DNA of 64,000 nt. Source: Medicago truncatula (lineage: Eukaryota; Streptophyta; Magnoliopsida; Fabales; Fabaceae). The notes below the pieces were generated by a model, which ran no database searches, was not told the origin of the DNA, and saw nothing but the letters and a program-made list of their open reading frames with translations. A program made the position numbers and the translations under genes. This document shows positions 7,054 through 63,918 of this stretch, in pieces; position 1 is the first letter of the stretch; the number at the start of each line of letters is the position of its first letter. The stretch lies in contig NC_053043.1 in assembly GCF_003473485.1 (NCBI RefSeq), positions 39,904,576 through 39,968,575 of the forward strand. Direction: 5' to 3'.

Positions 7054-9417
7054 CTATCTTGGTCCTGAAAGACTAACCGCTGATAGATAAGCATCAGAAG
7101 AAGAGGAGGTTTTTCCTTCATTAGAGGATTTTGGTGGTTTAGGAACAGTGCAAAGACCCTCTAACATTTGAACAACTTTTGTCATGGAAGGTCTCATAGA
7201 CATGTCTTCCTGTATACACCACAATGCAACATTTATAGCACAATGAACCCTATCATCATTCTCATCATCTATTTTCATCTCTGAATCAATGATATCTCTC
7301 ATTTTACCTTCTTCCATCATCTTAAAAGCAAAACGAGGGAAATTGAATTTCTCCGAAGTCTCATTAGGATCATAATTCTTCCTTCCCGCAATTATCTCTA
7401 GCAACACCATCCCATAGCTGTATACATCGCTTTTCTCTGATATAGCATAGTTTGTTATCCACTCGGGTGCAAGGTAGCCACGAGTTCCTCTTAATGTAGT
7501 AAAAACATGGCTTTCTTCTCTATTCATAAGCTTGGCTAAACCAAAGTCTGAAACTTTGGCAATGAAATGATCATCTAGAAGTACATTTTCAGGTTTGATG
7601 TCACAATGAACAATCTTTGAATCACACTCTTGATGCAGATAAGCAAGTCCTTTTGCTGTTCCTAATGCTATACTAAACCTTGTATCCCAATCCAAAAGAA
7701 ATTCACTTTTTTTGTTCTTGAATATCCATTTATCCAATGAGTTATTAGCCATGTACTCGTAAACTAGAAGCCTATGATTTCCATCTGCACAAAATCCTTT
7801 AAGCCTTACCAAATTATGGTGATGAATGCTTCCGATGATACTAACTTCAGCTCTGAACTCTTTCTTCCCTTGACCAATACCTTCCAGCTTCTTCACAGCT
7901 AATTCAGTCCCATCAGGTAGAAGTCCTTTATAAACTGATCCAAAACCTCCTTGACCAAGTTTCACAGAGAAGTTATTAGTTGCAACTTCAAGATCTTTAT
8001 AGCGGAAACGGATTGGCATGCCGGTTAAATTCTCCAAGAAATTTTCTTCTTCTGAATTCTCTCGAGGTAACCTTTTCTTTTTCTTGTAGTATAGAACCCC
8101 CATAAAGAGCAGAATAAGAAAAGTTATTATGACAACAATCACAACAACTATGATGTGCTTATTGCTTCTTTGACCTCCATCACGAGCAACCTTAATGTAA
8201 GAAACATAACCAGAAGAATCAGCATCATCAGATTTCTGAAAACTTCCAACACTGTCCAACAAGAAACAGTTCCCTGAACTTCTATGAAAGAACATTGCAA
8301 GACAAGAGCAATTTCCAAGACATGATGTTTGACAACTGGATAAATCAGTATTCGAATAGGGATGAAGAAAATCAAGCGCAAAGTAACCAAGTCCATCATC
8401 AACTTTCAGAAATTCAACAGATCTTTTTGATTCATCATCGCAAGGAGAGGCAAAACCTGGTTTACAACTAGGAAGAAGAACAAGAGGACAGCTACACATA
8501 CGGTTGTTTGAGCATATTCCGTAGGGATCACAAGGTTCTGGTGTACCACAAGGATCTCTTGGTATTCTTAGTGAAGCATCACTGTTTGATCCAGTACCGT
8601 TGAGATTCGAGAAAGTAATGACACCGTCTTTTCCTAAAACTGCAATCCAACTTGCATGTATATCAGAGACAATGAATTGCCATAACAAAGACTTATTGTT
8701 ATCATAGAACCTCCAAGAATTATCACTGAGATTTGCAAAAGCCACAACATCACCATTCTTGTTAATCGTTTTACGGTTATCATTCTGCATAGTCCAATAA
8801 GTCTGTGGAGTTTTGAAACCAGCTGAAAGAACAACATCACCAGATTTGATCTCAAGAACATAGGTCAAGTTATTTGAACTAGGTTCACTGGTAAGTTTCA
8901 TTCCCTCTTTGAAATCTTGTGAAGGCATTAAAGTATCAGTTGGATAACTAAAACTTTGCCAAATTACCGTATTATTGTCGTCGTTACCAAGCAAAACCAA
9001 ATTTCCAGTGTCTTGCAATTCCATTGTTTTGCTAATTGTGTTTGTAGACCAGATCACAGTTCCATTCCTCTGTAAATAGGCATTTCCTTTTTTATCAAAC
9101 ACAAAATTATCAACATTGGAAACTGGTAATGCTCTATTAGCAGTCCAAAGCACGATGGAGCTAGCCATGTGGACGATTGCTAATAGAAACTTGGTGTTGT
9201 CGTTTACGGTGGTGACAAAACCAAAAACAAAATTTCTATCCTTTGAGACGAGGAACTTCGACTTTTCGTCAATAAAACTCATTGGAGAAGCTTCCATCCC
9301 AGGTGAGATTGTGCCAATATATTGAATATCACATAAACACGGTTTGGACATGATCAATAGGGTGGAGATGAAAAGACCAACAACAACATAGGATAAAAAC
9401 CAATGTTTTGTTCCCAT
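7054..9417 (-). CDS. G-type lectin S-receptor-like Ser/Thr protein kinase, SD2-5 type
   Basis: An intronless 787-residue receptor kinase. A signal peptide (about 1-29, ending in a CLC motif) is followed by a B-lectin ectodomain (about 50-170, with WTANR and NGTVIWSTNT), a cysteine-rich stretch (290-325), a PAN-like region (about 345-410, SCQTSCLGNCSCLAMFF) and one membrane segment (about 420-442) before KKKKR. The kinase spans about 480-755: glycine loop GQGGFGSVYKG, catalytic Lys509, alphaC Glu524, IVHCDIKPEN with Asp606, DFG 624-626, GTRGYLAPEW and MRPSM. HCD in place of HRD makes it a non-RD kinase, common among immune-type receptors. The tail is Ser-rich and ends SLSGPR. It should sit in the plasma membrane and phosphorylate Ser/Thr; the ligand is unknown. 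The length and all catalytic motifs look intact. A divergent paralog lies 4.5 kb away at 13890-16274. The start is the first ATG before the signal peptide. Confidence 0.95.
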   Translation of the reverse strand: MGTKHWFLSYVVVGLFISTLLIMSKPCLCDIQYIGTISPGMEASPMSFIDEKSKFLVSKDRNFVFGFVTTVNDNTKFLLAIVHMASSIVLWTANRALPVSNVDNFVFDKKGNAYLQRNGTVIWSTNTISKTMELQDTGNLVLLGNDDNNTVIWQSFSYPTDTLMPSQDFKEGMKLTSEPSSNNLTYVLEIKSGDVVLSAGFKTPQTYWTMQNDNRKTINKNGDVVAFANLSDNSWRFYDNNKSLLWQFIVSDIHASWIAVLGKDGVITFSNLNGTGSNSDASLRIPRDPCGTPEPCDPYGICSNNRMCSCPLVLLPSCKPGFASPCDDESKRSVEFLKVDDGLGYFALDFLHPYSNTDLSSCQTSCLGNCSCLAMFFHRSSGNCFLLDSVGSFQKSDDADSSGYVSYIKVARDGGQRSNKHIIVVVIVVIITFLILLFMGVLYYKKKKRLPRENSEEENFLENLTGMPIRFRYKDLEVATNNFSVKLGQGGFGSVYKGLLPDGTELAVKKLEGIGQGKKEFRAEVSIIGSIHHHNLVRLKGFCADGNHRLLVYEYMANNSLDKWIFKNKKSEFLLDWDTRFSIALGTAKGLAYLHQECDSKIVHCDIKPENVLLDDHFIAKVSDFGLAKLMNREESHVFTTLRGTRGYLAPEWITNYAISEKSDVYSYGMVLLEIIAGRKNYDPNETSEKFNFPRFAFKMMEEGKMRDIIDSEMKIDDENDDRVHCAINVALWCIQEDMSMRPSMTKVVQMLEGLCTVPKPPKSSNEGKTSSSSDAYLSAVSLSGPR

Positions 9418-13889: not shown

Positions 13890-16274
13890 ATGGGAACCAA
13901 CTTCTTATGGTTTTTATCCTATGTTGTTGTTGGTCTTTCCATCTCCACCCTACTGATCATGTCCAAACTGTGTTTATGTGATATTCAATATATTGGCACA
14001 ATCTCACCTGGGATGGAGGGTTCTCAAGCGAATTTTATTGACGAAGGCTCGAAGTTCCTTGTCTCAAAGAATAGAAATTTTGCTTTTGGTTTTGTCACCA
14101 CCGTTAATGACACCACCAAGTTTCTATTAGTAATCGTCCACGCGGCTAGCTCCACCGTGCTTTGGACTGCTAATAGAGCACTACCAGTTTCCAATTATGA
14201 TAATTTCGAGTTTGATAAAAAAGGAAATGCCTATTTACTGAAAGATGGAACTGTGATCTGGTCTACAAACACAATTAGCAAAACAATGGAATTGCAAAAC
14301 ACTGGAAATTTGGTTTTGCTTGGTAAGGACGACAATAATACGGTAATTTGGCAAAGTTTTAGTTATCCAACTGATACTTTGATGCATTCACAGGATTTCA
14401 AAGAGGGAATGAAACTTACCAGTGAACCTAGTTCAAATAACTTGACCTATGTTCTTGAGATCAAATCTGGTGATGTTGTTCTTTCAGCTGGTTTCAAAAC
14501 TCCACAGACTTATTGGACTATGCAGAATGATAACCGTAAAATCGTTGATAAGGTCGGCCATGTTGTGGCATTTGCAAATATCAGGGACAATTCTTGGAGA
14601 TTCTATGATAACAATAGGTCTTTGTTATGGAAATTCATTTTCTCTGTTGATGCAGGTATAAATGCAAGCTGGATTGCAGTTTTGGGAAAAGATGGTGTCA
14701 TTATTTTCTCTAATCTCAACGGTGGTGGATCAAATGGTGATTCCTCAACAAGAATACCACAAGATCATTGTGATACACCAGAACCTTGTGATCCTTACAA
14801 CATTTGTGCAAATAACCGTAGGTGTAGCTGTCCTTCTGTTCTTCATCATCGTAGTTGTAAACCAGGTTTTGTCTCGCCTTGTGTTGATGATAAATCAGAA
14901 AAGTCTATTGAATTTCTGAAAGCTGATGATGGACTTAGTTACTTTGCACTTGATTTTCTTCATCCCTCTTTGAATACTGATCTGGCCGGTTGTCAAACCT
15001 CTTGTCGTGGAAATTGCTCTTGTCTTGCAATGTTCTTCCATACAAGTTCAGGGAACTGCTTCTTGTTAGATGGTGTTGGAAGTTTTCAGAAATCTGATGA
15101 TGCGGATTCTGGTTATGTTTCTTACATTAAGGTCTCAAGTCATGGAAGTGGAAGCGCCAATAAGCACATCATAATTGTTCCGGTCGTCGTTGTCATAATA
15201 ACTTTGCTTCTTCTTCTCTCTGTGGTGATTCTATATTGCAGGAAGAAGAAAAATTTACCTGCAGAGAATTCAGAAAAGACAATTTCTTGGAGAATTTAAC
15301 CGGCATGCCAATCCGTTTCCGCTATAAAGAGCTTGAAATTGCAACTAATAACTTCTCTGTGAAGCTTGGTCAAGGAGGTTTTGGATCAGTTTATAAAGGA
15401 GTTCTACCTGATGGGACTCAATTAGCTGTGAAGAAGCTAGAAGGTAATGGTCAAGGGAAGAAAGAGTTCCGAGCTGAAGTTAGCATCATCGGTAGCATTC
15501 ACCACCTTAATTTGGTAAGGCTTAAGGGATTTTGTGCAGATGGAACTCATAGACTTCTAGTTTATGATTATATGGCTAATAACTCATTGGATAAATGGAT
15601 ATTCAAGAAGAAAATAAGTGAATTTCTTTTGGATTGGGATACAAGGTTTAGTATAGCATTAGGAACAGCAAAAGGACTTGCGTATCTGCATCAAGAGTGT
15701 GACTCAAAGATTGTTCATTGTGACATGAAACCTGAAAATGTACTTCTTGATGATCATTTCATTGCCAAAGTTTCAGATTTTGGTTTAGCCAAGCTTATGA
15801 ATAGAGAGCAAAAGCCATGTTTTTACAACACTAAGAGGAACTCGTGGCTACCTCCTTGCACCCGAGTGGATAACAAACTATGCTATATCAGAGAAAAGTG
15901 ATGTATACAGCTATGGGATGGTGTTGCTAGAGATAATTGGGGGAAGGAAGAATTATGATCCTACTGAGACGTCGGAGAAATTCAATTTCCCTCGTTTTGC
16001 TTTTAAGATGATGGAAGAAGGTAAAATGAGAGATATCATTGATTCAGAGTTGAAAATAGATGATGAGAATGATGATAGGGTACATTGTGCTATAAGTGTT
16101 GCATTGTGGTGTATACAGGAAGACATGTCTATGAGACCTTCCATGACAAAAGTTGTTCAAATGTTAGAGGGTCTTTGCACTGTTCCTAAACCACCAAAAT
16201 CCTCTAATGAAGGAAACACCTCCTCTTCTTCTGATGCTTATCTATCAGCAGTTGGTCTTTCTGGCCCAAGATAG
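13890..16274 (+). pseudogene. G-type lectin receptor-like kinase SD2-5 type, frameshifted paralog
   Basis: A close paralog of the 7054-9417 kinase in the opposite orientation. Signal peptide, B-lectin, cysteine-rich and PAN regions and the membrane segment are open from 13890 to 15299. A 1-base deletion near 15275-15280 (relative to the paralog) shifts the frame just before the kinase domain and gives a stop at 15297-15299. The N-lobe and catalytic loop (LGQGGFGSVYKG, VHCDMKPEN, DFG) continue in the shifted frame at 15236-15810. A net 1-base insertion near 15810-15815 (GAGCAAAAGCC against GAAGAAAGCC), plus a 3-base insertion near 15855, restores the original frame for the C-lobe (about 15815-16274). 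The natural product would be a lectin-PAN-TM protein of about 469 residues without a kinase. Either a young pseudogene, a truncated receptor, or assembly error; two compensating indels make decay more likely than one sequencing fault. Confidence 0.85.
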
Positions 16275-17430: not shown

Positions 17431-17902
17431 ACAGCTGCACTAACCACAGCAGGGACCAGGCCACACAAAAAACACCAAAGCAGATCCAAAAAAGACAGCA
17501 CATTTCATCTTCTAAAATGTGCACATTCAATAAGAGGTGGTTGATTCACGGTTAACATTAGCAACACAGGGAACCAAGACAAATAAAAACAACACATATC
17601 AAATCATCTTCTAAAATGAAGTAGCTACATTCAATAGTCCATTTTTCTGAGACATGTCAAAATTTTAATCAATTTGTTGAGCAATGTTAATCAGATTATG
17701 CATAAACCCTAAACATTGTCAAGTTTTGAATAATGTCACTGGTTCAATGTGACTGAGTTTCCTGCATATGGAAGCTTGAAGGATGATGAAAATATGGTTG
17801 AAAAGAGAAGCGATTACCAGGATGGTGAAGATATGAGAAGCTTACCTGCAGAAAAGAAGCAATGGAAGAAGATAAAGCCACGGGATTTTTGTTTTGTTTT
17901 TT

Positions 17903-17998
17903 GGACCGTATCTTAATATGTGCGTGTCATCCTCGATGAGGAGGCCATGCTAATCTTCTTCGTATCGTTCCAATTTTACCTCAAAGAAACATTTGTTT
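17903..17998 (-). pseudogene. U6 snRNA-like pseudogene
   Basis: On the minus strand the core AAAATTGGAACGATAC, GAAGATTAGCATGGCC, GGATGACACGCACA and final GGTCC follow plant U6 snRNA. The essential ACAGAGA box reads ACGAAGA, the 5' stem-loop (GTCCCTTCGGGGACATC in functional U6) is replaced by unrelated sequence, and the middle has CTCCTCATCGA instead of CCCTGCGCAA. No T run follows the 3' end, so the Pol III terminator is missing. Probably non-functional. Confidence 0.8.
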
Positions 17999-18012
17999 GT
18001 GGAGTGTGCACA

Positions 18013-21187: not shown

Positions 21188-21899
21188 GCTTCCAAAGCCA
21201 TTTATTGAATATGCATTGAATCAGAGTTAATTAATCAATTTGAACCAATGGGATACCTCAACAAGATGGAAAAAACAAAACAACGCCGTAAAAAGATGAC
21301 AGACAAATCAAATGTCGCATTAAGACGACGAAATCATAAAAGAAAAAACTAAAATATATTTGAAAGTTATCATTTATTTATTTGAACAAAAAGGAAAGGA
21401 CATTTTATTATCTAGAGGAGTGATTTTTGATCATAAATTGGCCCTAAATCACCCCTCATGAGTGGATGAAGAAGAAAAGGAGGGGGTGGATACAGGCATC
21501 TAGGTTTTTCTTATTATACAAAAGTTAATTTTTCTTATTACTTTAGATGATATATTAGACCACAACAGTTCTATGATTTTTTATGTTTCAGATGAAACAA
21601 TAAAATTGTACCATTTTAGTTATTTAAATATTTTTTCTTGCATTTTTTATTGTAAAAGATCCATTTATAACTACAGTACTTTAAAAATATATTTTCAATA
21701 TACTCAATACAAATTAAAAAAATATATCTATGTAGTACCAACTTTTAAATAAAAATAATAATTTTAATGCTCTTAAACAAAATGATGCTCTGAATTGTTG
21801 CTCCTCCCATCCACCTTCGGAACCACCCCAACACCATACTAAAGGTATTTGCTGGCATCTTTCCATTAAGTAATATCTCACTCTTCTACCTTGTTTTTA
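21188..21899. other. Intergenic, no gene seen
   Basis: AT-rich sequence. The 9 bases just before the next element (TTGTTTTTA, 21891-21899) are its left target-site duplication. Confidence 0.4.
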
Positions 21900-22283
21900 G
21901 GTTAAATTGCACTTTTGGTCCATTAACTATTTAGGTAGTACCGTTTTGGTCTCTTAATTAAAATTTGATTTATTTGGTCCCTTAACTTTTCTTCGTTACA
22001 GATTTTGGTCATTTTCGTTAGTTTTAATTCAAAAATGTTAGGTTTTCTTCATCTTCTTCTCCTCTTATTCATCTTCATATCATCTCCATCAATCTTCAAC
22101 AACAAGAATCTCAGAAAAATTTCAGAAGAAAATGAAGAAAACCTAACATTTTTGAATTAAAACTAACGGAAATAGCCAAAATATGTAACGGAGAGAAGTT
22201 AAGGACCAAAATAAATCAAATTTTAATTAAAGGACCAAAGTGATACTACCTAAACAGTTATGAGACAAAAATACAATTTAGCC
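21900..22283. mobile_element. Mutator-like foldback MITE with 9-bp TSD
   Basis: A 384-bp element begins GGTTAAATTGCACTTTTGGT and ends with the inverted form (reverse complement GGCTAAATTGTATTTTTG). The two arms stay complementary for about 150 bases each, so nearly the whole element can fold into one hairpin. The duplication TTGTTTTTA is exact at 21891-21899 and 22284-22292, the 9-bp size expected of Mutator-like elements. Confidence 0.85.
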
Positions 22284-40440: not shown

Positions 40441-41671
40441 CTGTCTCGAATTTAGAAAATTACTTTTTTACTCATTGATATTTGTCATGTTATAAAAAAT
40501 GTTATTGATATTTAAAGGAGCAACCAAATTTTTTGGTAAAAAAGAAATGTTAAAGTGAATATATATTGTTGGATAATGTATTACAAATTGCCTTCGGGGA
40601 TGAAAAAAAGTTTCATTTTTTTATTAAAAAAAATGTTTCACTACTGGAACGGATGAGACGGGGATGCCCGAACCTGTCGGGGACGAAGATGAGATTCAGT
40701 TTCTCCTCCCCGTCATATATGAGTAGGATAACATGCAAGTAAAGTTAAGGATGGACGGAAAAGGTAAAACATGTCCCATCCCACCTCAATGTCATGCCTA
40801 TGTTTATTGATGCAATTATCCGCATTAGGTATGAGTAGGATAACAGGTAATTAGAGTCGGGGATGAACGAAAAAGGTAAAACATGTTCCATCCCACCTCA
40901 ATGTTATGCCTATGTTTATTGGTGCAATTTTGATATCTGTATTCACAACACTTTTTTTTTTTTGTTGAACACTAACTTTATATCCCCTACTTGGTTTTGA
41001 AGAAAAAAAAAGTAAGGGATAATCAAAATTTCATTATCCCGTACTAAAATTTCTTTATTATTATTTTTTAAGTTATTTTTTTTAAAGAAGTTAAATTAGT
41101 CCCTAAAATCGACACAAGGGATAGTCAAAATTGACACCAAAATTATTATTATTACATAAATTTATTATACAAACTGACGTTCAGATGAGCACTCTTGTGT
41201 TCATCGGTATGTTCTTTGGTTTTGCTAATATGTGTAAATTATGAACATTTTTTTTTCATAAAATTTTGATTTTGGCTAAAATTATTTTTATAAAAATTAT
41301 ATGTATAAATGTTTATCACTTTAAAATTGTAACTAACCATGCTTATCTTTTTAAAAGTTACCAACAATATAATATTCTTACAAACAAATTTGTTTAAAAG
41401 TATAATTAGAAGAATGAAAAATCCAACCTAAATTTTTCTATTCCCTTTATTTATTGTTATAGATGACTATAAATTATTATTTTTTTGAGAAAAATAATAG
41501 ATATTCATTCAAGTTGATATAAAACATCGATACAATATAAATTTGAAGTCGTTGAAAACAAAAATAATGAATTTGCGAAAAAACTCACAACATCCATGTT
41601 AATAGCATAAAACAATATAGTATATGAGCTAACAAATATTTATGATTACATTCAAGTGTCTGAATGTACTA
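40441..41671. other. Intergenic, no gene seen
   Basis: AT-rich. A roughly 120-base direct duplication is visible: ATGAGTAGGATAACA, GGTAAAACATGT and CATCCCACCTCAATGT occur at 40720-40810 and again at 40830-40920. Confidence 0.5.
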
Positions 41672-46140: not shown

Positions 46141-49100
46141 GCACAAGCAGCAAGGGCCATAACAGAAAGCAAGAAGAGGTAAACATCCTCTTCGTTCGTT
46201 TCTTTTCCTTTTTCTACCGTTTCTTTCACAAAAATTTCATCAAGATTCAAACTCAGATCTACTCCGGTTGAAATTCTTTTTCAAAAAACTAAGCTCAGAT
46301 TCATGCATAGGAGAAAAAAGGATGTTTGAAAATGTAAAAAAATTTTGAATCGGAGCAAGGAAAATTTTTCCGGCGGCGGCGCCGCCACCGTGAGGTGGCC
46401 GGCCACCGCGCCGGAGAAGCTAAGCATGACCGGAGAAGACAACCGGATTCTAGAGAGAGGACAGACTCTCTCTCTCTAGAATCCAAAGAAGAGAGAGGTT
46501 TTTTTGAGATTTTTGTGTTTTTTTTGTTGAAGCTCCTTTTATATACTCCTATGTTCCCACGCGCGCGCGTGCATGCTCTTGCTATGCTCCTTCGCATTGT
46601 GAACCATCAGATCTGGATTGTTCCAAGATCTGATGGCTGCTGTGTATTTGATTTTGTTTCCTGTGTGTGATCTTTTGTGTGGAGTATGCTGCATATTCTG
46701 TTTGAACCGTTAGATCTTTGATCTAACGGTCATTGTGCTTCCTGCAATTTTACACTATCTTTTGTGTTTTTTTTGGACCCTTGGATCTTTGATCCAGTGG
46801 CTGTGATGTAATCTTGGGAGCTAGATCTGGACCTCTGGATTCATCCAACGGTCCAGATTAAATCCTGCTGAGCCTTTTTTTTAATTGTTTTTTAATTGTT
46901 TTTTTAATACTTTTTTTACACTTTCTTGGTGTTTTATGCTTCCAAAATTTTTCTAAAAAATGTTTCCCTATCATTTTGATTTTTCCTCTAAGTTTTAGAA
47001 TTTATTTGCTTATTTTTGCATTTATTTTCTTTACTTTGTTCTTTTAATTCTTGCTCATTAAATTTTGTTGCATATTCATTTGGTGCATTTTTTTTATCAT
47101 TCCCATTATATTTTTCCTTGTTTCACTAACATTTTGTTCCTTATGTGACTTCACTCATAGCATTTCACTATCTCCTCCACTTTCTTTAGCTTAGCATTTA
47201 TTTTTGCAAGTTTTAATTCATTTGACGATGTAATTTGTTATCATTGGTTTGTAGCTTGGCAAAGGGGCCATAGAATGTATTTAGGCAATTTTTGTAATAT
47301 GGACTACGGACACTATGACGCACCGGCACGCACACACTCACCCTAGATGTATGCTTAGGATTGTATGCATAGATGTATGGCTAGGATTGCATGATTAGAT
47401 GAACGCTTAGGTTTAAACACTTAGAAAAAATTCAACTTTTTCCAAAATCACTTGAAAACTTTTTTTGAAAATAAAATAGGAGTTAAAACTCCTTATTTCC
47501 CTTTTATTTTCTTAGGAAAAATTCCTAATAAATTTTAACTATACTTGGACTTCATTTCGAAAAAGCTAACTCCACCTCACTTTTTTCAAAATCTCATGCC
47601 CTTGAGGCCTCTCATCTCTATTCTTCAAAATCTCTTTTCAAACTTAAAATCAACCAACAAAAACAAAAAAACCATTTTTTGAGAATGAACTACGATCGGT
47701 TTTGATCCCTTAAAAGGGTACGTAGGCAATGAGTCAAAACTCCTCCAATCCGAAATAAAATCAAATTCTACTTCTTCTCACCCCCATTCTTAACTAATCA
47801 CACCTTCCTTTTTTACAAATAAGCAATAAAACTAAAGCGTAGAAGTAAATTTAGGAAAGCGGTTCTTATGGAATACCATAATCGCTCCGGGTGCCTAACA
47901 CCTTCCCGTAGCGAAAACGACCCCCGAATCTAGAACTTTTTAAGGGTTTTTCTCCTTTTACCCTTCCCAAGAAAAAAGAGAGATATCAACGGTCGAAAGG
48001 TTCAAGTCCAATTAATGGCTTGGCACCCCAAAACCATGATAACAGGTATTTCTACCAAAATTTGGGAGCTAGCTGATGATAAGGCCGCTTTAGCTAAACT
48101 ATGAGCAACCTCATTTGCTTGCCTCCGTACAAACTCAACACGAGAGTTTTCATAGAATTGTCTAGAGAGAGTTTTACAATTATCAATTATGTTCCCGTAC
48201 TCTGTGGCTTCACTCTGACGAGAATTAAAGCTATCAACCACTCTCTTTGCATCCATCTCGAAGTCCACTGTTCCCGGTTGCAGCAAATGCACCCAATCCA
48301 TAGCAGATAGCAGACCAAGTGCTTCTCCTATATGGACATTACAAGTAGGACTGAAGTAATCTGTTTTAGCAAGTACAAAATGACCGTCCTCATCTCTAAT
48401 GCACATCCCTATGCCAACCAAATTAGTCGTCTCAGAAAAAGCCGCATCAATATTGCACTTGAACAGTCCGGAACTTGGCTTCATCCACTTAGTAATACAA
48501 GCTTGCTGTTCGCTACTGACAGAAACTTTTTGAATCGATTTTGCTGATTTCCAATCCTCAAGCAAAGTTTTGGCTCGATCAAAAACATATCCATGTGCAT
48601 CAGTCACTTCCTTCCATATTTTATTATTCCTTTCCTTCCATATACTTCATATAATACAACCAAACATAGATGCATCATCATTTGACAGTACCTGAAGTAT
48701 TCTGAATATGATATCCTTGACATCTTGGTGCTGATCGAATAAGTGATTAACAAAATAGGACGGGCTCCACATACTCCATATATTCCTGCTACCTGGACAT
48801 TTGAATATGAGATGCATGCTGTCCTCTTCATCCACGTTACATAAGGCACACACAGCTGCACAATTGACTCCCTTATCATGCAACCTAGTACGTGTCGGAA
48901 GACAATTCCGACAAATACGCCAAAGAAGACTTTTGATTCTTGGTGGTACCTTTAGCTTCCAAATCAAATCCCATGCTCCTTCTACTTTAAAATGAGAAGT
49001 ATCCAGTAGTCGTTTATACACATACGATAGGCACTGCAAACTGAATATTCACCGTTACTCTCTTTTTTCCAACTGAGCCTATCTGATTTATAATCGATGA

Positions 49101-50271: not shown

Positions 50272-50946
50272 GGTGGCATTTCACATGGGAAAGGCCAATC
50301 CTTTTCCACCATGGGAAAGATGGATTCAACAATTAGATTAAGTGAAGAACATATTCTTAACATGCTCTCTCAACACTATATTTTTCTTCACACTATCTTC
50401 CAACAATTTTAAAAATTCTGAAAATTAATTTTCAGAAATTAAAAAAATAAAAATAAAAATTCTGATAAGTTTTTTTTTTTTTTTAATTCTGTAATTCATT
50501 TATTTATTTTTAAATAAAAATAAAATTCTGGAAACTAAAATAATTTTTTATTTTTCTAAAAAGAATATATATTTTAATTTCGTAATAAAATAAGATATTC
50601 TGAAAAATAAAATAAAAATTTAAAAAAAATTATTTTAAAATTAAAGTTTTTATTTTTCTAAGAAAATAAAATTCTAGAAAATAAGTTTTTTATTTTCAAA
50701 AAATATTATCTATTTTTTTGTTGTTATACTAAAAAAAATAAAAAGTTTTATTTTGAAAAAAGCGTTTTAGAATGGTTGAAAAGAAAATCTGAACATTTTT
50801 TTAATTTGGAATGGTGGTAAAAATGTGTACAAAAATCTAGTGTGGAGAGAGTATAATAAAATTGTTCTATTGATTTGATCTAATGGTTAAATGCCAACTT
50901 TCCCATGATGGGAAAAGATTGACCTTTCCCATGTGAAATGGCCACC
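50272..50946. mobile_element. MITE with ACATGGGAAAGG-type inverted ends
   Basis: The left end GGTGGCATTTCACATGGGAA with AGGCCAATCC and TTTTCCACCATGGGAAAG is mirrored at the right end (reverse complement GGTGGCCATTTCACATGGGA). The arms are about 48 bases. TTGTTATTG occurs at the left border and, three bases off, at the right, so the 9-bp duplication is only approximate. AT-rich core, no gene. Confidence 0.75.
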
Positions 50947-51344
50947 TTATTGTTATTGTTATTTGAAGTTGCTTTGATATTGGTTACTATTTTCCTTTTG
51001 CTCTATGCATATAAATTTATTGACGTGAATTTTAAGTTCGAATTCACAATACGTTTGTTGATTGAATGTTTATGTTAAATGGTCTTTAATTACTCTTTAG
51101 ATTTGATATCAATAGAAGTTCGACTAAAAGTCAAATTTTTTATTTTAGAGAAGTTCGACTAAAAGTCAATTATTTTGTGAATGGCTATGATTGTACTCTT
51201 TCTAATGAAAGTAGGATAAATGATCCTTTTAGCATTGCAACCTTGGAACTTACACTTGTTTGAGCTGAAACTGGAAGAACAAATGAAATGGGCAAATTTC
51301 GTGCTTGAAATGGACAAAGCACTTTAAAAAAATTTCTTACTAAC
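50947..51344. other. Spacer, no gene seen
   Basis: A short direct repeat, AGAAGTTCGACTAAAAGTCA, occurs twice at 51115-51170. Nothing else is recognised. Confidence 0.4.
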
Positions 51345-51520
51345 GAGTGTCCTCAGGGCAATGGTTAAGGAAACCAAAAGTAATATATTTATATTAAATT
51401 CAACAATGGTTTGACTTTTAAAAAGTTAAATTCTTGGTTTTTCACCATTTATCAATATAATGTTTCTATTTTTATCATCTTAATCAATGTCTAAAAAATA
51501 CTCTTTAACATTTTCCTTAA
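51345..51520. mobile_element. MITE with GTTAACTTGTGCC-type ends, copy 3
   Basis: The left end is ACGAGTGTCCTCAGGGCAAT with GGTTAAGG. The core GTTTTTCACCATTTATCAAT and right end CTTTAACATTTTCC are collinear with 41975-42152. Confidence 0.5.
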
Positions 51521-51827
51521 AAAAAATGAATGGATCCATGTGTAGTTTAGGTTGGATAGTGTAGAAGGCTTTAGTTTAGAGTGCATTGTAAAGATATCAA
51601 CCACATAGTTGAGGTCTAATTTTATAAATTATAACATATTATTTTCTCCTACTTTTAATTAATATGAAGTTATGAACATAATTTTCCTTTTGTCAAAAAA
51701 AATCATGATTTACCATGCTGCTATTGATTGGAAATCTCCATCTCCATGAAGTTGTAACCTTTCATGGATTTAAGACGTGTGCTTTCTTGTATCTTTTTTC
51801 TTTCTTTCGAGTTTGGTGGTTGTTTTT

Positions 51828-53489
51828 TGTGGTATTTATCATGGGAAGGCTTAATCCTTTTTCAATATGGGAAATGTTACTTTTTACCTCTATGTGACAC
51901 TCAAACAAGTTGCTTTTATTTTGTTTGTTTTTTCAATGATTCAAAAAGTTAATATTTAATAGTATTAACAAGTTTACTAGTACACCCCTATTTCTATGAA
52001 ATCATATATGCACCTCATCTATTTACACGTAAATGATTTATCACGTAATTTTTTTGTTGTTGTTGATATCTAACTTTTTTTTTTTTTTAATTTGACAAAC
52101 TTTTTTTTATGGTAAGGGATTAATTTACGAGTTTTTTTATTGTTAAAATAATTTTTATTTACTAAAATCTTATTTTAATACTATTTTATTTCAGTTTTTT
52201 ATACTTAATAAAAGTTAAACATAAAAAAAAAAAAGTAAACGTAACTCTTCTATATGTCACCAGAAATTAAACTTTTCTATAAAAAAAAAAAAAAAATTGA
52301 ATATGAATCTTTTAAAAAAAACTGAACGTAACAATAGTACAACACAAACTATATATCTTTTTTTAAGGAAAACATATTTACAGTATTTATTTATTAAAAA
52401 TTTGAAATATGAAGTTTAATTAAACATAACCTCTTTTTTCATAAACGTAATTAAATATTGCAGAGGGTAAAAATGGACTTTAATCAAAATAGTAAGGTTA
52501 AAAGTGGAAGAAAAAACAATAAGCTATAAACTCAAACGCTACTTGAAATAGCGTATGGAGAATAAGCTATAAACTAGTGAAATACGCTATAAGCTCATGA
52601 CAAGAAGACGTTTATCAAACAGAGCTTTTTTGGACATAGGAACTTATAAGCTATCCACTATAAGCTATAAGTTAATTTACTGGCCTTACCAAACAGACCC
52701 TTAACCAAATAATACTTAATGTTTTGGTTTTTTCGAAGTCAGAAATATGTAGGCGGGGGTTCCAATAGAATGTTTTAGTTTGGGCTTTGTCATTTTCGTT
52801 TTACTCATAGGCCCATTGTCCATTATTGTGCCAATAATCCATAAAATAAAGGTTTAAATGTGTAATTGGTCCCTGCACTTTCATCAGATTTTGGCATTGA
52901 TCCCTGCACTTTTTTTTGTTTGGCATTGGTCCCTGCACTTTGTAAAAATATTGGTATTGGTCCCTCTGTTAACTTTCTATTAAAAAAAAAAACACAAAAC
53001 CAACGGAGTGCCACGTGGCCCAATCATTTCACGACACGTGGCACCAATATCAATATTTTTACGAAGTGCAGGGACTAATACCAATATTTTTACAAAGTTC
53101 AGGGACCAATACCAATAGTTTTGTGTTTTTTTTTAACAGAAAGTTAATAGAGGGACCAATACCAATATTTTTACAAAGTGCAGGGACCAATTCCAAACAA
53201 AAAAAAGTGTAGGGACAAATGCCAAAATCTGATGAAAGTGCAAGGACTAAATGCATATTTAAACCTAAAATAAAATATCACTAAACCTTATCATGTGGGT
53301 CAATTTTTTTTATTTTTTCTTGAAGGGAATGTGGGTCAAAATTTTTGTAAAATCTTTAAAACAAAAAGTCACCAATAAATTGCAAGTGGACAATCTCAAC
53401 TATTCAATATTTTTATTAATATATCAAGGATTTAAATTTACCTTTCCCATGGTGGGAAAGAATTAGCATTTCCCATGATAAATGTCACC
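51828..53489. mobile_element. Larger MITE of the CATGGGAAAGG family with 9-bp TSD
   Basis: The left end TGTGGTATTTATCATGGGAA and right end (reverse complement GGTGACATTTATCATGGGAA) are inverted repeats, and the family matches 50272-50946. The duplication GTTGTTTTT is exact at 51819-51827 and 53490-53498. The interior is AT-rich and contains a second MITE at 52851-53265. Confidence 0.75.
52851..53265. mobile_element. Mutator-like MITE with 9-bp TSD, nested
   Basis: A 415-bp element begins GGTTTAAATGTGTAATTGGT and ends CTAAATGCATATTTAAACC. Several GGTCCCTGCACTTT-type repeats in the left arm are inverted in the right arm. The duplication TAAAATAAA is exact at 52842-52850 and 53266-53274. A short GC-richer centre has GTGCCACGTGGCCC and CACGTGGCAC, ACGT-core palindromes. 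Confidence 0.85.
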
Positions 53490-53498
53490 GTTGTTTTT

Positions 53499-53953
53499 AG
53501 CCTCTTTATTTTCTTCGCAGCAATGCTTTTTTTCAATACGTCTCATCGCCACTTGGCAACGTTTTTTTGTTTTTGATTTGAAGGAACGTTATTTCTAAAA
53601 CTATTTTTTTTTTTATATCACTACTATTATTTAACTTTTCCCGTTATTTATCATGAAAGTCTAATTGAAAAATAAAAAAGTATAATGAAAGTTAAATATA
53701 AAAAGCTTTGATGATCGTGAAGATTTTATGTGAGATCGTGATTAAGGTTAAGTGATCATAGAATGAGCTAAAGAGATAAAATGATACATCGATGTACCTT
53801 AAAGACATTTAACTATAATTAAAATTTTATGAATGGTTTTCTTACAACTTCTAAGTACTAAAAACAATTTAATTGAAATTGACAAAACATGGAATTTTAA
53901 CTTATAAAGTGATCAACCACTTTTCTTTTTATTCCATGCAAATGTGAAAAAAT
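53499..53953. promoter_or_regulatory. Upstream region of the NCR peptide gene
   Basis: AT-rich promoter-side sequence, starting right at the MITE's target-site duplication, about 455 bases before the NCR start codon. Known NCR promoter motifs were not verified. Confidence 0.35.
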
Positions 53954-54228
53954 ATGGCTCAAATTCTCATGTTCATTTATGTTTTGATCATCTTTCTTTC
54001 TCTATTTCTTGTTGTAACTAACGGTAAGTCATTTTTCACACTATTTTCAATCTTACATTTTATCTTATAGACAATATTTCATCACCCTTAAGTAACACTC
54101 ATTTAGTCTTGTTTGACATGGCAGCTCGTCCGTGCAATAATGTCGATGATTGTCGAAAACATATGTGTACTCCTTATGGTCAACTTGTGAGGTGCATTAA
54201 TTCAACTTGCGAGTGTGTGTTAGATTAA
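53954..54228 (+). CDS. Nodule-specific cysteine-rich (NCR) type secreted peptide
   Basis: Two exons, too short for simple ORF calling. Exon 1 (53954-54023) starts MAQILMFIYVLIIFLSLFLV and encodes a hydrophobic signal peptide ending near VTNG. The donor G|GTAAGT at 54024 and acceptor GGCAG at 54124 remove a 101-base intron in phase 1. Exon 2 (54125-54228, TAA) gives a mature part of about 33 residues with six cysteines spaced C-x5-C-x4-C-x8-C-x4-C-x1-C. This structure (signal-peptide exon, phase-1 intron after it, short cysteine exon) is the signature of the NCR family known only from legumes of the inverted-repeat-lacking clade. In Medicago such peptides go to the symbiosome and steer rhizobial differentiation. 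The total is 57 residues. Expression in nodules is inferred from the family. Confidence 0.9.
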
Positions 54229-56224
54229 TAATTATATTGAAAATAATTATATGTCACATATAATCTCATTTTCTTCTTCTTCAATCACCTCCACCTAAGA
54301 GGGATGATTTAGAGTCAATTTGTTTACCAGAAAATTTCCCTCTAAATCGTTTTTCTCCTTAAAAAAAGTGATTTTCCTATATATGTAGATTTTCTTTCGT
54401 GATTTCGTCGTCTTAACGTGCGTTGTTTGTTCGTCGTCTTTGTGCGGTCTTGTTTGTCTTTTCTGTCATGTTAGCATGTTTGTTCATTCAGATTGTCAAA
54501 TCAACTTCGATCCGATGAAAATCCAATCAATGGCTTTGTTTTCGTCAACCATACTGATCCAGAGACATGAGTACTTTGGAGACTTGAATATATTCGTATT
54601 TGTAGATTTATGTACTTTATCGTTTTATGCTATTAACATGAATGAATGATGTGAGTTTGCTTGCAAATTTATCCTATTTGTTTTTAGCAAATTTGTATTT
54701 TTTTAATATACTATATCAATTTAAATGAATGAACTAATAAAAACCTTGTGCATTTGAACAGATCTGTACATTTATAGTTGATGTTCCACACTGATATTAT
54801 AAAATGAAAAAAAATCTCATTAGTATTTTTAAAGTATCAATATTAATCTAATATTTCTATAAAATATTTATTTATTTATTTTTGCAAAAAATTCGTTAAA
54901 TATTTGCACCACGCAAGGTGCAGATCTTATACACTTATATATAGATATTCATTTTAAGATGTAACATGTCAACCCATAGCACGAATAAACATCGTCACTT
55001 CACATAATTAGCAAACCAAACTTTAGAAAGTTTTTAAAATAGGTAAAAACACATTAATATAACCATCCGACCAATAGACCAACTGCTTATGCATCAATCT
55101 CGACAATTTGGATCTCATCGAATCTATCACTGGTTTCCAAGTCGAACTTCTCATCGGGTTTGCACCAAGTCGGGAGTATTCATAGAGAGTATTCAATTCA
55201 ATTAATTAAAAACAATGTATTATTGCACAACAAATCTTCAATAAAAGACACACTACATTTGGTGTATCCTCGCCTACATAAATAGCCTCATCGTTTTATC
55301 TAACGAAAGTTTAGAAGATCAAAATCTCATATCCAATGTTAGTGGTTTTTTCTAGATTACCCCTTCATGATTTAGGTAAATTTTCTTTCATGATATCAAC
55401 CAATCAAATTATAGTATATGTAAGCAACATTAAAAGTTAAATAAATGAGTCAATTTTAATCTTAAGGTAAATTTTGTACTTTTAATTTTTAATTAATTAT
55501 ATTTAGGTGTTCAATCTTAATTAATTTACACCATATAGCTTATATCAATTAAAATTTCACATCAAATTCTGAATATCCTTTCATCTGAAATTTACCCATA
55601 AATTTGGTAAAATTGTATGCTTATTGGGTGAGATTGTCGAATGAATGCATTTTGACTAAAAAGTTTGACAAACTCAATTTCATAAAGTAATCTCTATAAA
55701 TCTATATCTCTTTTTTAATTGCTCAAAAAATATATCTTTTCTAATACCAAAAAAACATTTTATAAGTTGTAAAAAGTTTCAATTAAAAAATCTCTATAAC
55801 GCTAATCATTAATAAAAAGGAAAAACAAAACAAAAAAGTTGAAGGATCGAACCAAATCCAACAAAACTAAGCAAAATAATAGGTAGAGATATCAACCTAC
55901 CTCAAGAGAAATCATCTCAGATCACTTATATCAATAGTTTTATCACTCTCATGATAAGAATTTGTCTAACATTTTTATTGAGTAATGCAAGATTAATGTA
56001 TCTTTTTATTCTAATCTTTGTTACTACAACCTCTTTGGAAACCCTAAATCTAATTCATTTGGGCGCCAAAACATCTGGGCCGTTGATTCAATGTCAATTG
56101 AAATCAACGACTGATAAACCTTCTTTGTGATTAGTTGTTTTGAAAATTACAATGCATTTATTTTAATCATTTTCCAATGACAAGTACACACAACTCAATA
56201 CTATTTTCAAACAAAAAACAGATA
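54229..56224. other. Intergenic, no gene seen
   Basis: 3' flank of the NCR gene, then AT-rich sequence. The 69-codon frame at 54440-54649 is not supported by features. Confidence 0.4.
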
Positions 56225-62409: not shown

Positions 62410-63918
62410 CTAAACAGCAGAATCAAAGGTCTTCCTCTTCTGATGTTGTTTTTCCACAAATACATCCATATCATCATCCTGCACGATTCCATTCATCAAT
62501 GCTGACTCAGTGATCTTCCTCTCCACAGACGCGATGACGCCAAAAGCCACAGTTTGACGCCTGTCTCTCGCAACAAAACGGCCGAGTGGAGGATAATAAG
62601 CGAAATCCTCTACCACCATAGGCTTGGTGGGAATCATCTTAATAGCAGCAGCATCACCACTCTTCAAGAATTCAGGCTCCTTCTCAATTTCCTTACCATA
62701 AAACCAGTCAACCTTGGCAATAAGCTCAACAAACATGACAGCAACGTGGGAGGTGTGGCAGTCAAGAATAGGTGTAAAGCCTTTTCTAATCAGGCCAGGG
62801 TCATTTGTGATGATAACTTGAGATGTAAAGTGAGCGGCTTCCGTGGCTGGGTGATCGATGGAGTCTGAGGCAACATAGCCCGGCTTGAGATCACCAGCAG
62901 CAACATTCTTGCAATCTAATCCCACAAAGTCACCGGGAAAGGCGATAGGGACAGCTTCACCATCCATCTGCACAGACTCGACTACATCTTGCAGCCCAGT
63001 TGGGGCAAAAGTCACCGCCATTCCAGGTTTCAAGTGACCAGTCACAACACGTCCTACATGCACATTTCCGATTCCTCCAATCTTTGTAGACACCATGAAG
63101 TGGTATTCGGAGAGGATTGAGAAATAGCCTCGCAGACAGAGGCAATTAGATACGGTCAAGAGCTTCAAGAAGGGTGGGACCCTTGTACCAGTCAAGATTA
63201 GTAGAGCGCTCAATCAAGTTATCTCCCTCAAAACCAGAGATGGGAACAAATGGAACTTTGTCTAGGTTATAGCCAAGCTTTTCCAAAAAGCAATGAAGTT
63301 TGCTCTGAATTTCTTGAAACCTAAACATGCAGCAGTTAGCGGCATCCATCTGTAAGAGATAGATGATAATTAGGTACTTAAATAAATGGATTATTAAAAA
63401 AAATTGAAATACAAGTTTAAAGGGGCTGAAAATATAAATAGAAATACCTTGTTGATGCAGCAGATCATTTGAGGCACACCAAGAGTGCAGGCGAGAAGGG
63501 CATGTTCACGGGTCTGACCATGCTTAGAAAAACCAACTTCAAAACCACCAGGAGAGGAATCAACGATAAGAAGAGCGCAATCAGCATAGGATGTCCCATT
63601 AATCATGTTCTTAATATAATCCCTGTGTCCAGGGGCATCAATGACAGTGTACCGGTACTGGTTTGTCTCAAAATTACGCATAGAAACGTCAATGGAGATA
63701 CCTCTTTCACGCTCAGCCTCGAGCTTGTCAAGAACCCAATTAGCATACTTGAATGAACACTTGTCGATCTGAGCAGCTTCTTCCTCAAGACTGTCAATGA
63801 CATGCTTGTCAATACATCCAAGCTTGTGGAGCAAATGACCGGTTGTGGTTGACTTCCCAGAGTCAACATGACCAATAACCACAATGTTAATATGAAACTT
63901 TGGCGTTGGCTTACCCAT
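62410..63918 (-). pseudogene. Elongation factor 1-alpha (EF-1alpha), decayed, intron-containing
   Basis: Exon 1 (63448-63918) starts [20 protein letters not shown] and holds the GTP-binding G1 GHVDSGKST, the EERERGI-like [10 protein letters not shown] and G3 [12 protein letters not shown]. The intron 63350-63447 (98 bases, AAG|GTATTT to ACAG) falls at NK|MD, where plant EF-1alpha genes are known to have one, so this is a gene copy and not a retrocopy. Exon 2 runs to [11 protein letters not shown] and meets a TAA stop at 63146-63148. Five to ten codons later the conserved [12 protein letters not shown] returns, but an extra A (run at 63083-63085) shifts the frame before [12 protein letters not shown]. 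The rest, to 62410, is open with many non-consensus residues and an unusual C-terminus. In a working gene the product delivers aminoacyl-tRNA to ribosomes; here domain 1 alone is intact. Confidence 0.85.

What the first reader, a model, noticed from the sequence alone, without database searches (positions are those of the whole stretch)
53954..54228. A likely unannotated NCR symbiotic peptide gene amid MITEs
The two-exon structure, signal peptide and six-cysteine spacing C-x5-C-x4-C-x8-C-x4-C-x1-C are seen directly, and are the hallmark of NCR peptides. Coding exons of 70 and 104 bases escape simple ORF calling. A 1.7-kb MITE ends about 455 bases upstream, so the promoter region abuts a transposon, which could affect or have carried nodule expression.
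Basis: partly seen in the sequence, partly recalled or inferred. Interest (0 to 1): 0.75.

Follow-up and report, generated by a model that had tools for sequence, protein, structure and literature searches.

The report
A nodule NCR peptide gene
This is an ordinary-looking member of the large legume gene family whose small secreted peptides control nitrogen-fixing bacteria in root nodules, with that family's characteristic promoter and a transposon sitting just upstream.

Summary
Exons 53954-54023 and 54125-54228 splice to 57 residues with a signal peptide and cysteine spacing 5-4-8-4-1. The product matches Pfam PF07127 (Nodulin_late, the NCR family) over the whole profile at 69.1 bits, cutoff 30.4. 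A loose two-exon search found only this cysteine exon; 60 simulated windows gave none. The five published NCR promoter motifs lie directly upstream, -317 to -20, in the order 2-1-4-5-3 as in NCR169; motif 2 alone is within chance. So it is very probably an NCR expected to be nodule-expressed; expression could not be tested. The mature peptide is near neutral (pI 6.7), so direct killing of bacteria seems unlikely (inference). "Unannotated" could not be tested and is doubtful: 678 NCRs are annotated in M. truncatula A17 Mt5.0. The "1.7-kb MITE" is a 1,662-bp terminal-inverted-repeat element with an exact 9-bp target duplication (Mutator-like) and a nested MITE. It leaves 455 bp before the ATG, holding all five motifs. 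TEs near NCR genes are reported as the rule.

The parts
53954..54023 (+). coding exon 1: signal peptide (MAQILMFIYVLIIFLSLFLVVTN plus first base of the next codon)
   Evidence: translation; highest 12-residue mean hydropathy 3.47; Pfam match starts at residue 1
54024..54124 (+). phase-1 intron, 101 bp, GTAAGT...GGCAG, 70% AT
   Evidence: two other in-frame splice forms from the same ATG not excluded
54125..54228 (+). coding exon 2: mature six-cysteine peptide RPCNNVDDCRKHMCTPYGQLVRCINSTCECVLD and stop
   Evidence: sole C-x5-C...C-x4-C-x-C stretch in six frames
53637..53678 (+). NCR promoter motif 2 (weak copy), -317 to -276
   Evidence: best hit in the window, but its gapped score 18.7 lies below the null maximum of 21.1 in 100 windows; ungapped 15.6, 34 of 41, null maximum 16.1 in 40
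53758..53797 (+). NCR promoter motif 1, -196 to -157, one base shorter than the consensus
   Evidence: gapped score 31.1 against a null maximum of 21.2 in 100 windows; missed by the ungapped scan
53799..53839 (+). NCR promoter motif 4, -155 to -115, 38 of 41; holds AGACATTT (evening-element-related) at 53803
   Evidence: score 38.2 against a null maximum of 19.0 in 40 windows; the AHL-binding stretch of NCR169, -157 to -121, lies in its motif 4
53842..53882 (+). NCR promoter motif 5, -112 to -72, 38 of 41
   Evidence: score 33.1 against a null maximum of 17.2 in 40 windows
53885..53934 (+). NCR promoter motif 3, -69 to -20, 46 of 50, holding TATAAAGTGATCAA
   Evidence: score 34.0 against a null maximum of 10.1 in 40 windows
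51828..53489 (.). non-autonomous Mutator-like terminal-inverted-repeat element, 1,662 bp (neighbour of the gene, not part of it)
   Evidence: inverted arms 51829-51883 / 53434-53488, 75% complementary; ends alike at 18 of the first 25 bases; exact 9-bp duplication GTTGTTTTT at 51819 and 53490
52850..53266 (.). nested MITE, arms of 148 bp, 91% complementary
   Evidence: 9-bp duplication candidate TAAAATAAA at 52842 and 53266

Best explanation
An intact six-cysteine NCR gene, the only one found in this window, of an inverted-repeat-lacking-clade legume, most likely Medicago. Shown: gene structure, family membership by profile, and a five-motif NCR promoter in the published order (one motif weak). 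Inferred: the promoter is switched on in infected nodule cells, in part by AHL transcription factors at motif 4. The precursor is secreted, the signal peptide is removed near TNA|RPC, and the 33-residue near-neutral peptide reaches the bacteroid compartment. There it acts as one of many NCRs that tune bacteroid differentiation, by binding bacterial targets or modulating cationic NCRs and not by killing directly. The Mutator-like element inserted upstream of an already complete promoter.
For: PF07127 at E 4.1e-19 over profile 1-54 of 54. Two-exon null: 0 models in 60 windows. Promoter motifs 4, 5 and 3 above every one of 40 null windows and motif 1, gapped, above every one of 100; all five in the order 2-1-4-5-3 stated for NCR169. 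Nallu et al. report these motifs absent from the 1 kb upstream of 33,131 annotated Medicago genes, NCRs excluded (passages). Motif 4 sits at -155 to -115, where NCR169 has its AHL-binding stretch, -157 to -121. Closest solved relative by sequence: chickpea NCR13, E 0.0055, residues 25-55, all six cysteines aligned. AlphaFold model of the mature peptide: helix 6-10, strands 20-24 and 27-31, mean pLDDT 81.3; NCR13 by NMR has helix 5/6-10 and strands 20-24 and 27-31. Two exons and a mature length of 24-65 residues are usual for NCRs.
Against: No expression data. Motif 2 alone is not above chance, and motif 1 was found only after I turned to a gapped scan. The model's pTM is 0.41, and Foldseek gave nothing significant: 15 matches, best E 3.9, 14 of them short toxins that I recognise as scorpion ones, NCR13 not among them. 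The NCR13 sequence match is weak, and NCR13's authors say that no other IRLC legume expresses an NCR with significant homology to it. The mature length of 33 is shorter than the 35-50 of most NCRs. No homologue from a second accession was compared, so selection on the reading frame is untested. Acceptor choice is not settled.
Confidence: 0.93

Rival explanations
1. A silent NCR copy (overlaps with the best explanation: still an NCR by descent): intact in sequence but not expressed, perhaps because the upstream element brings DNA methylation or displaces needed distal promoter sequence.
For: For three NCRs, Nallu et al. saw GUS with 1,000 bp of promoter and not with about 400 bp, and here sequence beyond about -455 is the element. 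Motif 2 is weak.
Against: Open frame, splice sites and four strong promoter motifs are present. For NCR169, 436 bp sufficed for the expression pattern and for complementation, and 455 bp remain here.
Confidence: 0.2
2. A defensin-like gene outside the NCRs, expressed in other tissue such as seed or flower.
For: Weak resemblance to short scorpion toxins in sequence and fold searches, so the cysteine layout is not unique to NCRs.
Against: PF07127 is the only one of 4 Pfam matches above its cutoff, and the NCR promoter set is present.
Confidence: 0.03
3. Chance open frames around a cysteine-rich stretch.
For: Short exons in AT-rich DNA, where the GC fraction is 0.32.
Against: 0 models in 60 null windows; whole-profile Pfam match; promoter motifs.
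Confidence: 0.005
4. The transposon carried the promoter or the gene here.
For: Proximity (455 bp); [quoted passage not shown] 2016, which I did not see).
Against: The 9-bp duplication closes the element at 53489, so motifs and gene lie outside it. blastn found no second copy of the promoter-plus-gene stretch in the window. All NCR genes with 2-kb flanks in A17 and R108 are reported to contain TEs, so closeness says little.
Confidence: 0.04

Closest known systems
NCR (nodule-specific cysteine-rich) family of IRLC legumes, Pfam PF07127 Nodulin_late, six-cysteine group
   Same: two exons, signal peptide in the first, six-cysteine mature peptide in the second, profile match, five promoter motifs in the published order
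   Different: nothing beyond ordinary sequence variation that I could test; near neutral, as 23% of M. truncatula NCRs are said to be
Chickpea NCR13 (PDB 7th8, 8ulm)
   Same: aligned over 31 query residues with all six cysteines; similar predicted helix and strands
   Different: NCR13 is cationic (net +8) and antifungal; this peptide has a charge of about -0.2 at pH 7; 8 and not 7 residues between cysteines 3 and 4; fold search did not list NCR13
NCR169 promoter
   Same: motif order 2-1-4-5-3 and position of motif 4
   Different: motif 2 weak; beyond about -455 lies a transposon; the NCR169 sequence itself was not compared
Non-autonomous Mutator-like elements
   Same: terminal inverted repeats, exact 9-bp duplication
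   Different: the class rests on the duplication length, a trait I recall and took from no call; no transposase was sought

Membership tests
NCR / Nodulin_late (PF07127) | profile match above the curated cutoff | tested here: met
   69.1 bits against 30.4, profile 1-54 of 54
NCR / Nodulin_late (PF07127) | two exons, the first for the signal peptide, the second for the mature peptide | tested here: met
   by sequence; splicing itself not observed
NCR / Nodulin_late (PF07127) | four or six conserved cysteines in a mature peptide of 24-65 residues | tested here: met
   six cysteines, about 33 residues (range)
NCR / Nodulin_late (PF07127) | five conserved promoter motifs clustered within about 400 bp | tested here: met
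   five in order; four above every null window, motif 2 not
NCR / Nodulin_late (PF07127) | nodule-specific expression | not testable with these tools
   no expression data at hand
NCR / Nodulin_late (PF07127) | found in an IRLC legume genome | tested here: inconclusive
   own-genome search unanswered five times; only a MIR5298 hit, a family I recall as Medicago's
Classical plant defensin | eight or ten cysteines in about 45-54 residues | tested here: not met
   six cysteines, about 33 residues
Mutator-like element (upstream element) | terminal inverted repeats with a 9-bp target duplication (recalled) | tested here: met
Mutator-like element (upstream element) | relation to a Mutator transposase or to an autonomous copy | not tested
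   no transposase search was made

The most novel reading that the evidence does not exclude
An NCR gene missing from current catalogues that is also a natural promoter experiment: only about 455 bp of native promoter stands between the gene and a Mutator-like element that pushes the rest 1.7 kb away. Normal nodule expression would show, for one gene in vivo, that some 450 bp suffices, and would bear on the disagreement between about 400 bp being insufficient (three NCRs, PMC3613412) and 436 bp being sufficient (NCR169, PMC9946822). If expression depends on demethylation of the element, the transposon would be part of its control.
Probability: 0.12. Interest if true: 0.4.

Novelty: new member of a known kind. 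Interest (0 to 1): 0.2.

Why it matters
NCRs control terminal differentiation of rhizobia and are easily missed by gene callers. One more member is ordinary, but its recognisable promoter set and sharply bounded native promoter make it a convenient natural test of how much promoter an NCR needs. It also shows that promoter motifs can back an NCR call from bare sequence when expression data are lacking.

Tried and rejected
Other NCRs in the window: none seen in the five best hits per motif, in the cysteine pattern scan (1 match, this gene) or in the 12 best tblastn rows; a diverged or four-cysteine NCR with other spacing could be missed. Exact peptide strings in the paper library: four strings, 0 papers, which says little because NCR tables sit in supplements that could not be read. 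The ungapped scan missed motif 1 and gave only null-level hits elsewhere; the gapped scan was chosen after I had seen that and had read the region by eye. Fold comparison with the PDB gave no significant match. A larger element from 50272 to 53489 was considered because a sibling repeat lies at 50272; the 9-bp duplication fits 51828-53489, and the bases before 50272 do not match those after 53489. Papers holding NCR genes, transposable elements, MITE and Medicago together: 0. Limits: the two-exon null used a Markov model of the window and my own loose thresholds; the motif scores use weights made from the published consensus letters, not the original matrices.

Full report
What is there. Spliced, it gives 57 residues with cysteines spaced 5-4-8-4-1.

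Is it more than chance? I asked a script for any two-exon model in the window with a first exon of 55-95 bases coding a hydrophobic leader, an intron of 60-600 bases and an NCR-like cysteine core. It returned 12 models, all 12 ending in this same cysteine exon; 6 of them begin at another ATG (53475) inside the upstream element. 60 third-order Markov windows gave 0 models. The Pfam profile PF07127 matches over its whole length at 69.1 bits against a cutoff of 30.4; the other 3 Pfam matches listed are below their cutoffs. Two other in-frame splice forms from the same ATG score the same (69.8 and 69.7), so the profile does not settle the acceptor. The GCAG acceptor at 54124 is preferred as the better-looking site, which is inference.

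Promoter. Nallu et al. 2013 (PMC3613412, passages) describe five motifs of 41-50 bases found upstream of 209 NCRs and report them absent upstream of 33,131 other annotated Medicago genes. A 2023 paper (PMC9946822, passages) gives the order 2-1-4-5-3 for NCR169. I scored both strands of the window with weights made from the published consensus letters. Motifs 4, 5 and 3 have their best hits in the window at -155, -112 and -69, scoring 38.2, 33.1 and 34.0 against null maxima of 19.0, 17.2 and 10.1 in 40 windows. The ungapped scan missed motif 1; a gapped scan found it at 53758-53797 with 31.1 against a maximum of 21.2 in 100 windows. Motif 2 has the window's best hit at 53637-53678, but its 18.7 is below the null maximum of 21.1, and ungapped its 15.6 is below 16.1. 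The five stand in the order 2-1-4-5-3. Motif 4 holds AGACATTT at 53803, the evening-element-related form reported in PMC8982390 (passages), and lies where NCR169 has its AHL-binding stretch, -157 to -121.

The peptide. The mature part has a computed pI of 6.72 and a charge of -0.2 at pH 7. A review (PMC7314904, passages) says that cationic NCRs with pI above 9 in general seem antibacterial, that of the tested anionic ones only NCR211 affected rhizobial survival, and that 23% of M. truncatula NCRs are neutral. So direct killing seems unlikely and a tuning role in the bacteroid compartment is the better guess; this is inference. The AlphaFold model has a short helix (6-10) and two strands (20-24, 27-31), mean pLDDT 81.3, pTM 0.41. 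Chickpea NCR13 has helix 5/6-10 and strands 20-24 and 27-31 by NMR (PMC11637438, passages); its numbering is one ahead of mine at the helix. Foldseek found nothing significant among 15 matches and did not list NCR13, and the sequence match to NCR13 is weak (E 0.0055).

The upstream element. The inverted arms 51829-51883 and 53434-53488 are bounded by an exact 9-bp duplication, GTTGTTTTT, at 51819 and 53490. That makes a 1,662-bp element, Mutator-like by its duplication (a recalled trait), with a nested MITE of 148-bp arms at 52850-53266. 455 bp lie between the end of the duplication and the ATG, and all five motifs lie in them, so the element did not bring them. A comparison of two ecotypes reports that all NCR genes with their 2-kb flanks contain TEs (PMC8862580, passages), so the neighbourhood is normal.

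Novelty. Mt5.0 of A17 has 678 annotated NCRs, while a general pipeline called only 20 in R108 before a dedicated search raised this to 616. In M. truncatula SPADA's 1,170 predicted cysteine-rich genes included 125 missing from the annotation of its day, 77 of which were judged real (PMC3924332, passages). Whether this gene is listed could not be tested: no annotated legume genome was at hand, supplements could not be read and the own-genome search was unanswered. I think it more likely listed than not. It is a new member of a known kind at most.

Noticed in passing
22056-22146 (-): MIR5298 precursor match (82.3 bits, Rfam) that spans the loop and inner ends of a long inverted repeat with 148-bp arms at 21913-22060 and 22124-22271, as a MITE-derived miRNA might.
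   Followed up: partly
7054-9417 (-) and 13890-16274 (+): Two related B-lectin receptor kinase genes (relation seen by eye); the second reads in three overlapping or adjacent ORFs instead of one, so it may be frame-broken. Pfam was run on its first two ORFs only.
   Followed up: partly
about 50272-50945: A shorter element with inverted repeats of the same family as the one beside the NCR gene.
   Followed up: partly
48002-48607 (-): RVT_3 (reverse-transcriptase-like) match, probably a retroelement remnant.
   Followed up: no
62410-63918 (-): EF1-alpha gene in two ORFs: 62410-63213 has EF1-alpha domains by Pfam; 63394-63918 was recognised by eye only.
   Followed up: no
17895-18000 (-): U6 snRNA match at 50.8 bits, little above the gathering score of 44, so possibly a degenerate copy.
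   Followed up: no
54362-54538 and 54570-54730: Two stretches downstream of the NCR gene have inverted copies, about 71% alike, at 21193-21379 and 41503-41670 respectively, so repeats lie on the 3' side too.
   Followed up: no
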